DNA from: Tricholoma matsutake
Taxonomy: Eukaryota; Basidiomycota; Agaricomycetes; Agaricales; Tricholomataceae
DNA: 64,000 nucleotides
Assembly (NCBI GenBank): GCA_026075535.2
Contig: AP026550.1
Span: 6,076,001 to 6,140,000 of the forward strand
Direction of reading: 5' to 3'
Part shown: one piece after another, positions 5,659 to 8,123 of the stretch
Layout of the letters: each line of letters opens with the position of its first letter
How positions within the stretch are numbered: position 1 is the first letter of the stretch
Position numbers and translations under genes: made by a program
The notes under the pieces: model-generated
Databases searched by the model: none
What the model saw: only the letters and a program-made list of their open reading frames with translations
Told to the model about the DNA's origin: nothing

Positions 5659-8123
5659 CTACTCGTAGACCTTGAATAACCTCGATCTTGTTCTCTTCGT
5701 GTTCGGCGCGGTCGTGGCCTTGGGAGCAACCACAGAGGCAGGTGCAGGTGCAGGTGCCGGCTTGGGTTTGGCTCCGACAGCTTTAGCGGGAGCTGCACTG
5801 GAAGAGGCAGCAAAAGGAGTCGATGTAGTGGGTACGGTGCTATTACTAGGCGCAGATGTTCCCTTGACGTATGCAGTCGCCACTGCTACAGCACATGGGC
5901 CATCGTCTGTCCAGTCGCCTGCTGCACCTGAACGAATCAATCAGTTGGTGATGAGCACAGTACATTTGATGAGTATGAGCATACCTCCAGGCACGTCTGG
6001 GATATGACAGCAACATCGTTTACTAGGAGTGATCATGATGGCTGCTCGATTTATTACGTACCTGCTTCAGACCACCATTTGGCTGTCCATAAATGCCCTC
6101 TATACACATGGTCAGCACACGGCTCTACAGTGTCAGGGCAAGGATGCATACCCGTAGGTTACTTGCGAGCCACCGGTATACTGATTGGAAACAGATCATC
6201 GAGAGTTAGTCTACCGACTCATACACCCGGATGAATGTAAAGACAAACCGCGACAGTGGATGACCAAGGAGCAACTCCCGCACAGTTCACAGTGCCACCC
6301 GCTGTCGTTGTCGTCGTTGATGTTGACGATGAGGGAGGAGGTGCGGAAGAAGTAGTCGTCGTCGTGGTCGATGGTGATGTGGTGACTGTTCCTCCACTCG
6401 TACCAGGGCCCATAGCATTCTTAGCGGCTATATCATACCGTCCATTAGCTGATCAAACCAAGCCATCGTTCACCTCAGTATTCAACCATGCAACTATGGA
6501 GAATACACGAACCGTAAGCCTGGGACGCGTCCCAAAGCATTATTCCACCAAAGGACGAATACTGAGCACGCGTCTGTTGAGCGAGGTTTCCAAGCGTAGT
6601 AGCGTCGACATATCCTGATCCTGCTGCAGTGGACGAGGCAGGTGCGCCGATGTAGATCTTGACGTTGGGATTGGGCGAGACTGTCTTTGCCCAGTTGTCC
6701 CTGTGATGTGAGCATTAGGACAGCAGAACTGCTTCTGGTATGAGACTCAAACCATGTGCCGAAATTGAAGGACTTGTGAGGATTAAGAGTTATCGTCATT
6801 GTTAGTGCAACAGGTGGGATGACACTTCACTCACGCTAGGGTTATTGAGACCGCAGTAGTTGTTGTACTGTAAGGCCGTAACCGTTGTCAGGATTGGAAG
6901 TCAATGCGGGGGTGTTCTACTTACACTACATGCTATGTTCAAGTGACAGCTCTACGACGAGTGAAAAACGAAACTCACACTGGAAAGAGGAAGATGCGAT
7001 ATAATGATCAGAAATTGTGACAGTCGCGTCGATACTTTAGAACTCACACTAGCAATCGAGAATTTCAGCAGGAAAGATTAATAAAAGTCAGTAAGCATAC
7101 CTGAACATAGATAGCATCGAATGGGACGGCGTTGATAATTGGGCCCATGTATGCATCCGGGTAGGGACATTGCGGTGCACCCGTGACATAGTACCTGAAT
7201 CAAAAGGATGAACAAACAGCATACACAAATGAAATATAGGCCGACGGTTTGCTCGCTCCGTTGAAATGCGTTCGAAGCTGAGTTACGAAAGCGGCAAAGC
7301 CCGTGCTCCCGCCGCCTTCGATGTCCAAATCCACCCTAGATGACACATGGTTTGAGAACTTCATGCACGTTGCGAAGAGTAGCTCATACACACCCATCAA
7401 GGACGGCATTGCCGAAAGGACGCGTGGAACTTGATCCACCAAGGAACAAATTCCAAATCGTATCCGCAAACGCTATTCCTTGAGCATCGGAGCTGAAACT
7501 TGCAGCACCAGATGCACCTCCGAGACTGATTGTGATTATCTTGCCCGCAGCCTGACACGTTTGGATGTCAGTTGCAAGGAACTGGCAGTTGGCAAGATTG
7601 GTCCCAGGAAAGACACCTGTGCTGGAGCTGCAGATCTGTCGAAGTGATGAGATCTACATATGCTATAAGAGCAAAGTAATAGTTACGTTGGAAAAATTGA
7701 TCTCTGGGTCCCCTCCAGTGGAGAAAAATACATTGAGGAACGCAAGAGGGATAGCATTGATGATGTTGTCCTGGATGATGATGGATTTAGATTAAAACTA
7801 TTCGATATCGTATGACGAAGGAGCATGAACCTGGCAATATGTCGACAGGGTCTTCTGCCAATTGGCCGTGTCAGAGCTATGTGTCGCACCGTAGGAGTTT
7901 TGTCCCCAATAGCTGCACAAAATCAATGTCAGCCACGGAACCGACTTTAAGATAACATTCATACACTGCCATCTGGATGACGTGCAATTATTAGAACTCA
8001 TTCTCGAGTAAAACATGTACGAACGTTGTCATTCCTGGTGGGATCAAACCCTGCGGCTTGGAGGATGACACTAGAGGCGACGAGCACTGCAAAGAACACA
8101 GAATGGCGGTGAAGGAAGACCAT
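5659..8123 (-). CDS. Secreted GH18 class III endochitinase with C-terminal chitin-binding module
   Basis: The model has 18 exons and 496 residues: 8123-8025, 7972-7965, 7912-7831, 7770-7687, 7635-7394, 7335-7246, 7194-7101, 7048, 6979, 6925, 6867-6835, 6772-6753, 6700-6513, 6448-6249, 6180-6152, 6099-6062, 5996-5985, 5927-5659. A signal peptide (about residues 1-24) precedes the GH18 barrel, which has VYWGQNSYG, SLGG and the catalytic DGVDLDIE with acid Glu178. A Ser/Thr/Pro linker (about 325-365) leads to a CBM5/12-type module containing APWSSTVAVY and GGHLWTAKWWSEAD. A basic Ala/Pro/Lys-rich tail of about 70 residues follows. The enzyme should hydrolyse chitin beta-1,4 bonds outside the cell or in the wall. 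Exons of 8, 12 and 20 nt, plus three of a single nucleotide, are needed to keep the family sequence. Confidence 0.9.
6868..7100 (-). other. Intron cluster with three candidate 1-nt exons
   Basis: On the minus strand, exon 7 of the chitinase ends at 7101 (..IYVQ) and the next clear exon starts at 6867 (YNNYCG..). The family has Phe between them (QFYNNY). In the gap, AG-T-GTGAGT occurs at 7048 and 6979, and AG-T-GTAAGT at 6925. Splicing at all of them gives introns of 52, 68, 53 and 57 nt, each normal for this gene, and three single T exons that make one TTT codon. Nested (stwintron-like) excision would be an alternative reading of the same signals. Confidence 0.65.

What the first reader, a model, noticed from the sequence alone, without database searches (positions are those of the whole stretch)
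6868..7100. Three consecutive single-nucleotide exons making one Phe codon in a chitinase gene
Sequence: exon ..IYVQ ends at 7101 (minus strand) and YNNYCG.. starts at 6867, with 233 nt between. Inside are exactly three AG-T-GTRAGT sites at 7048, 6979 and 6925, giving introns of 52, 68, 53 and 57 nt, the normal size for this gene. Known: GH18 class III chitinases have QFYNN here, so a Phe codon is expected and cannot be obtained from any single-intron splice. Three T exons give TTT. Single-nucleotide exons are very rare and I know of no case of a whole codon built from three. A set of nested introns (stwintrons) sharing these signals is the main rival explanation.
Basis: partly seen in the sequence, partly recalled or inferred. 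Interest (0 to 1): 0.88.

Follow-up and report, generated by a model that had tools for sequence, protein, structure and literature searches.

The report
One codon from three one-letter exons
In a chitinase gene of the matsutake mushroom, one amino acid is predicted to be spelled by three separate exons of a single letter each, which would mean the cell's splicing machinery builds that codon one letter at a time.

Summary
In a GH18 class III chitinase gene (minus strand, 8123-5659; Tricholoma matsutake chromosome 13), CAG (ends 7101) and TAC (starts 6867) are separated by 233 nt with AG-T-GTRAGT at 7048, 6979 and 6925, the window's only AGTGTRAGT sites. The four introns (52, 68, 53, 57 nt) match the gene's other 13 (51-68 nt). 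Of 818 open GT-AG splice paths, one restores Q-F-Y: the three-T path; nested (stwintron-type) splicing gave no other. A GenBank protein of T. matsutake 945 equals the model at 495 of 496 residues, Phe included. All 25 transcript-like homologues listed carry this Phe, against 185 of the other 228; annotation of many genomes fails at this codon. A paralogue has a 4-nt exon in the same patch, matched by a transcript-like protein. No RNA read across the site was seen, so the splicing is inferred. Single 1-nt exons are known; three in a row making a codon were not found in the papers searched.

The parts
5659..8123 (-). GH18 class III chitinase gene with CBM5/12, 18 exons in this model, 496 aa
   Evidence: model, 1491 nt, no inner stop; PF00704 and PF02839 over curated cut-offs; GenBank protein P0001 equal at 495 of 496 residues
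7101..7194 (-). exon 7, ends ...IYVQ (CAG)
7049..7100 (-). intron 7, 52 nt, GTATGC...GCTAG, candidate branch site CTGAA
7048..7048 (-). exon 8: single nucleotide T, first letter of the Phe234 codon
6980..7047 (-). intron 8, 68 nt, GTGAGT...TTCCAG, candidate branch site CTGAT
6979..6979 (-). exon 9: single nucleotide T, second letter of the Phe234 codon
6926..6978 (-). intron 9, 53 nt, GTGAGT...ATGTAG, candidate branch site TTGAA
6925..6925 (-). exon 10: single nucleotide T, third letter of the Phe234 codon
6868..6924 (-). intron 10, 57 nt, GTAAGT...TTACAG, candidate branch site CTGAC
6835..6867 (-). exon 11, starts YNNYCG (TAC)
7965..7972 (-). exon 2, 8-nt micro-exon ATGGCAGT of the same gene, also an 8-nt exon in the paralogue
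5985..5996 (-). exon 17, 12-nt micro-exon of the same gene

Best explanation
The Phe234 codon of this matsutake class III chitinase is predicted to be assembled from three consecutive single-nucleotide exons (T at 7048, 6979 and 6925), by the likely removal of four short introns of 52, 68, 53 and 57 nt. The sequence shows the three AG-T-GTRAGT sites directly; that the cell uses all of them is inferred. Likely mechanism: each intron is recognised as a unit across its own short length (intron definition), because there is no exon to recognise. Since each AG lies one nucleotide before the next GT, two neighbouring introns can hardly be in the catalytic step together, so they would be removed in turn (for example 7 and 9 first, then 8 and 10), each ligation leaving the same AGT|GTRAGT context for the next. 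Strong intron-side donors (5, 5 and 6 of 6 matches to GTAAGT) would make up for the T before each donor. All four would have to be removed: joining one or two T's shifts the frame, and skipping all three gives an in-frame protein lacking Phe in the conserved QFYNN motif (that this motif lies at the active site is recalled, not tested).
For: Sites and lengths; all three AGTGTRAGT sites of the 64 kb lie here; 0 of 20,000 gap shuffles with two or more AGNGTRAGT. 1 of 818 GT-AG paths gives Q-F-Y, and 1 of the 18 short products of iterated or nested splicing (donors GTRNG or GTNAG, introns 45-130 nt). A single 233-nt intron would be far outside the 51-68 nt of the 13 other introns. A profile of 154 homologues without P0001 ranks QF first among the 26 distinct products of the 29 flank-keeping paths (604.3 against 601.8 bits for the next); so does a profile of 20 transcript-like ones (589.3 against 586.2). 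GenBank protein P0001 of T. matsutake 945 equals the model at 495 of 496 residues including Phe234; [quoted passage not shown] matsutake 945 among ten species with symbiotic transcriptomes (PMC7550596, passages). With the Phe left out of the query, each of the 5 alignments shown to solved chitinases (of 27 sequences matched) leaves a gap at Q-f-YNN. 25 of 25 transcript-like homologues have the Phe, against 185 of the other 228. In the paralogue, a 4-nt exon in the same patch, found by the same reasoning, is matched by a transcript-like protein that contains all 285 modelled residues.
Against: No RNA read or cDNA across the junctions was seen, nor how P0001's Phe was obtained. Intron 7 has a below-average acceptor and the candidate branch site of intron 9 is TTGAA rather than CTNAY. 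With any GT as donor, 280 of 4,000 shuffles can make a Phe codon from micro-exons. The profile margin of QF over the next product is only 2.5-3.1 bits. Skipping all three exons keeps the frame, so a Phe-less protein is conceivable. The window's gene groups with Amanita proteins that are annotated with the Phe, not with the Phe-less Tricholomatineae proteins, so those do not show the same arrangement by descent.
Confidence: 0.88

Rival explanations
1. One 233-nt intron: CAG is joined to TAC and this gene has lost the Phe; the three AG-T-GTRAGT sites are chance or relics.
For: In frame, no stop. Eight of the 155 proteins read VQYNN without Phe.
Against: Intron 3.4 times as long as the longest other intron of the gene; two or more such sites in 0 of 20,000 gap shuffles; P0001 of the same species has the Phe; 25 of 25 transcript-like homologues have it, two of them inside a five-row clade (SH-aLRT 99) whose three annotated members lack it.
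Confidence: 0.06
2. Nested introns (stwintrons, [D1,2] type): an internal intron splits the G|T of an external donor, e.g. CA|G[gtatgc...ctag]TGTGAGT..., and the T's belong to introns.
For: A T exon that follows an exon ending in G can be parsed this way; such introns are described in ascomycete fungi (PMC9024468, PMC5639578, passages).
Against: Within the limits of the enumeration it gives V-H-Y-N-N or a frameshift, not Q-F-Y; it would use donor GTGTGA although GTGAGT lies two bases on.
Confidence: 0.02
3. All three T exons exist but inclusion is variable, so that the codon is a regulated switch between an active and a Phe-less enzyme.
For: Skipping all three is in frame.
Against: No isoform data; products with one or two T's are frameshifted.
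Confidence: 0.04

Closest known systems
Single-nucleotide exon of Fusarium CYP621A (PMC12940212, parts 1 and 2 of 3 read)
   Same: Fungal gene, 1-nt exon hidden in an over-long annotated intron (139 nt against a 56-nt median) inside a conserved motif, needed for the frame; missed by annotation.
   Different: One 1-nt exon giving one base of a Gly codon; confirmed there by RNA reads. Here three in a row would give a whole codon; no reads seen.
1-nt micro-exons of plant APC11 and VPS55 (PMC4674806 and PMC8831610, passages)
   Same: 1-nt exon between AG and GT; VPS55 donors are GTRAGT as here; missing from annotations.
   Different: In the passages seen, one per gene, validated by constructs, RNA-seq or RT-PCR. 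The adjacent micro-exons reported there are 5 and 12 nt.
Stwintrons of ascomycete fungi (PMC9024468, PMC5639578, passages)
   Same: More than one intron packed into one intron position, removed stepwise by intron definition.
   Different: In stwintrons nothing between the introns reaches the mRNA; here each spacer T would.
Recursive splicing at ratchet points (recalled; mentioned in PMC4674806)
   Same: Acceptor and donor abut, so removal must be stepwise.
   Different: Ratchet points leave no exon and divide long introns (recalled); here introns are 52-68 nt and would leave one base each.

Membership tests
Single-nucleotide exon | exactly one base between a usable 3' AG and a usable 5' GT | tested here: met
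   three sites AG-T-GTRAGT, flanking introns 52-68 nt
Single-nucleotide exon | needed for frame or conserved motif | tested here: met
   Q-F-Y only by this path with GT/GC-AG introns; one further path if an AT-AC intron is allowed
Single-nucleotide exon | base present in mature RNA | not testable with these tools
   no reads held; protein-level support from P0001 only
Stwintron [D1,2] | internal intron splits the first and second base of an external donor and the nested reading gives the right mRNA | tested here: not met
   nested readings give VHYNN or frameshifts
GH18 class III (hevamine-type) chitinase | GH18 domain with DxDxE motif and QFYNN | tested here: met
   (PF00704 61 bits, cut-off 29.6); protein has DGVDLDIE and VQFYNN; one search matches 2uy2 endochitinase, hevamine and class III ChiA1. 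That DxDxE is the GH18 catalytic motif is recalled
Introner (transposable intron) | the intron sequence recurs elsewhere in the genome | tested here: not met
   251 bases across the cluster match only themselves in the 161-Mb genome (the search skips very common words); the four introns are no more alike than shuffles (lowest 218 of 1000)

The most novel reading that the evidence does not exclude
The QFYNN codon patch of mushroom class III chitinases is an intron-saturated hot spot: in matsutake the spliceosome reads out a whole codon as three one-letter exons by obligatory stepwise splicing, and other Agaricales, above all Tricholomatineae, hide the same Phe codon in one- to three-letter exons that annotation has missed.
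Probability: 0.45. Interest if true: 0.88.

Novelty: new variant of a known kind. Interest (0 to 1): 0.82.

Why it matters
It would set the lower limit of exon anatomy: not only can an exon be one base, three such exons can stand in a row and make a codon with no exon sequence to help recognition. It gives a compact natural substrate (233 nt, four introns) to ask whether splicing can be purely intron-defined and in what order, and how such clusters arise. It may also explain why a number of deposited mushroom chitinases lack or garble a conserved residue, and shows a cheap way to find hidden micro-exons: look where genome annotations and transcript-like sequences disagree at a conserved motif.

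Tried and rejected
Introner origin: no other copy of the cluster in the genome, and the four introns are not alike, so neither a transposable intron nor a recent tandem duplication of one intron unit is seen. Other GH18 genes of the genome (8 loci returned, of 11 matches) as further comparisons: none showed the QFYNN motif in a six-frame scan, though an intron inside the motif would hide it from that scan; only the C3 paralogue was used. A regulated switch was considered; there is no isoform evidence. A literature search for the strain name and one for micro-exons in fungal chitinases gave nothing used.

Full report
Where it is. The genome behind the window has 161,040,721 bases in 13 contigs and the window lies on contig 13 of 9,869,253 bases. 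These figures equal the total and chromosome 13 of the telomere-to-telomere assembly of Tricholoma matsutake (PMC10211490, passages), so the window is T. matsutake chromosome 13, bases 6,076,001-6,140,000.

The gene. Minus strand 8123-5659 gives an 18-exon model of 1491 nt and 496 aa; its 17 introns are 51-68 nt. Pfam finds GH18 (61 bits, cut-off 29.6) and CBM5/12 (28 bits, cut-off 26.2); matched solved structures include an endochitinase (2uy2, best), hevamine and class III ChiA1. The gene has other very small exons, of 8, 12, 20 and 29 nt.

The observation. Between CAG ending at 7101 and TAC starting at 6867 lie 233 nt with AG-T-GTGAGT at 7048, AG-T-GTGAGT at 6979 and AG-T-GTAAGT at 6925. 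AGTGTRAGT occurs nowhere else in the 64 kb on either strand; 0.98 matches are expected, and 6 of 100 shuffles of the whole window reach three, so the number is not odd but the clustering is. A scan for chains of AG-N-GTRAGT sites 45-75 nt apart found this chain of three (with its two sub-chains) and no other, even of two, in the window or in eight other loci of the genome (59,552 bases counting both strands). In 20,000 dinucleotide shuffles of the gap, 165 hold at least one such site and none hold two; 10 give an exact Phe codon with GTRAGT donors. With any GT as donor, 280 of 4,000 do, so path existence alone is weak evidence.

Which splice product fits. Enumerating paths of up to five GT-AG introns of at least 40 nt gives 818 open paths, 29 of which keep both flanks, and one gives Q-F-Y: the four introns of the finding. 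GC donors (1 of 2977) and introns down to 30 nt (1 of 7245) add none; AT-AC introns and a 20-nt minimum, up to four introns, add one implausible path among 18,900. Iterated and nested splicing, which covers stwintrons (donors GTRNG or GTNAG, introns of 45-130 nt), gives 18 short products, 6 of them in frame with both flanks, and one Q-F-Y, by the same four introns; the nested [D1,2] readings give V-H-Y-N-N or frameshifts. The 29 flank-keeping paths give 26 distinct products; profiles built from 154 homologues (P0001 left out) and from 20 of the 25 transcript-like ones both rank QF first, by 2.5 and 3.1 bits.

Signals. The three donors after the T exons match GTAAGT at 5, 5 and 6 of 6 positions; the other 14 donors of the gene match at 3 to 5. 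Branch-site candidates are CTGAA, CTGAT, TTGAA and CTGAC. Intron 7's acceptor is below average, though within the range of the other introns. GTRAGT donors are also conserved at the 1-nt exon of plant VPS55 (PMC8831610, passages).

Protein-level evidence. The best database hit, P0001, is a GenBank glycoside hydrolase of T. matsutake 945; it equals the model at 495 of 496 residues (residue 483 differs, N to K) and has Phe234. [quoted passage not shown] matsutake 945 among ten species with symbiotic transcriptomes (PMC7550596, passages). That P0001 comes from that annotation, and that its Phe came from RNA, is my inference: I know of no gene predictor that would place three 1-nt exons unaided. 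Leaving the Phe out of the query leaves a gap opposite F in all 5 alignments shown to solved structures (of 27 sequences matched).

Family pattern. Three searches list 253 distinct proteins (one listed each, of 1876, 2594 and 2206 found; in the first two only the candidates sharing most words were scored). I of them transcript-like: sources lgn, jgi or ena only and contigs under 6 kb. The label was set after I had seen that the first 14 carry the Phe, and that they are cDNA is inferred from a long open frame on a short contig in an intron-rich family. All 25 have QFYNN or QFYDN; of the other 228, nearly all with NCBI names, 185 do (one-sided Fisher p 0.007; sequences are related, so this is only a guide). 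In the two searches centred on the window's gene type, 12 of 13 annotated Tricholomatineae proteins lack the motif against 9 of 124 others (the suborder was looked up for T. matsutake, L. shimeji and C. nuda, and recalled for the other genera). The one that has it is P0001. In the third search, on the paralogue, 4 of the 5 proteins I take to be of that suborder (Hypsizygus, Arthromyces, Tricholomella, Asterophora, not Termitomyces) also lack it. Eight of 155 proteins read VQYNN, as if CAG were joined to TAC. In a tree of 50 chosen rows (quick method, Phe column not removed), a five-row clade (SH-aLRT 99) holds two transcript-like rows with the Phe and three annotated rows (L. shimeji, L. atratum, Tricholomella) without it; the window's gene itself groups with Amanita proteins, which are annotated with the Phe. 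So in that other lineage the Phe is in transcript-like sequences while genome annotation loses it, which points to hidden tiny exons at the same codon; their size there is unknown, and a common origin with the matsutake cluster is not shown.

A control in the same genome. The C3 paralogue (55-71% identical over four matched stretches) has exons of 8, 82, 84, 90, 20 and 188 nt as the window's gene does, but differs here: TATG|TCCA|ATTTTAC, with introns of 50 and 47 nt around a 4-nt exon, the only one of 7 flank-keeping paths that gives VQFYNN. The transcript-like protein P0156 contains all 285 modelled residues of the paralogue; its longest contig is 5,609 nt, long for an mRNA of this gene, so its cDNA origin is less sure than for the shorter ones. 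Many annotated relatives of that paralogue are garbled at the same place. The same reasoning thus found a micro-exon that an independent sequence bears out.

How it likely works. Shown: the sites, the unique path, the family constraint. Inferred: four intron-defined splicing events, neighbours not at the same time because AG and GT are one base apart, strong donors making up for absent exon sequence. How it arose is open: the introns are not alike and no other copy was found in the genome; the neighbouring intron positions in the paralogue suggest repeated intron gain or shift in one patch.

Known or new. Single 1-nt exons are known in Arabidopsis APC11 (PMC4674806, passages), plant VPS55 (PMC8831610, passages), Fusarium CYP621A (PMC12940212, parts 1 and 2 of 3) and placozoan mitochondrial cox1 (PMC5436844, search listing only). 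Searches for one-nucleotide exons and for consecutive, tandem or adjacent micro-exons showed no case of consecutive 1-nt exons in titles, abstracts or the passages opened; that covers only this open-access library. I therefore call it a new variant of a known kind.

Noticed in passing
L019:1354-1357 (T. matsutake contig C3, paralogue): A 4-nt exon TCCA between introns of 50 and 47 nt in the paralogous chitinase, in the same YVQFY patch; matched by the transcript-like protein P0156.
   Followed up: yes
P0157, P0159, P0161, P0163, P0167, P0169, P0174, P0177, P0178, P0181, P0183 and others: GenBank annotations of the paralogue family are often garbled between IY and FYNN (17 rows of other form and 9 without the motif as searched, among 98 new rows; 4 of those 9 do have QFY(N/D)N), as if a 4-nt exon had been missed.
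   Followed up: partly
P0122 (Cyclocybe aegerita), P0133 (Pluteus cervinus): Annotations run out of frame right after VQ as if one base of the Phe codon had been missed, which may point to a 1-nt exon there too (no DNA seen).
   Followed up: no
window 7965-7972 (-): 8-nt exon ATGGCAGT; the paralogue has an 8-nt exon GTCGCCGT at the same place.
   Followed up: yes
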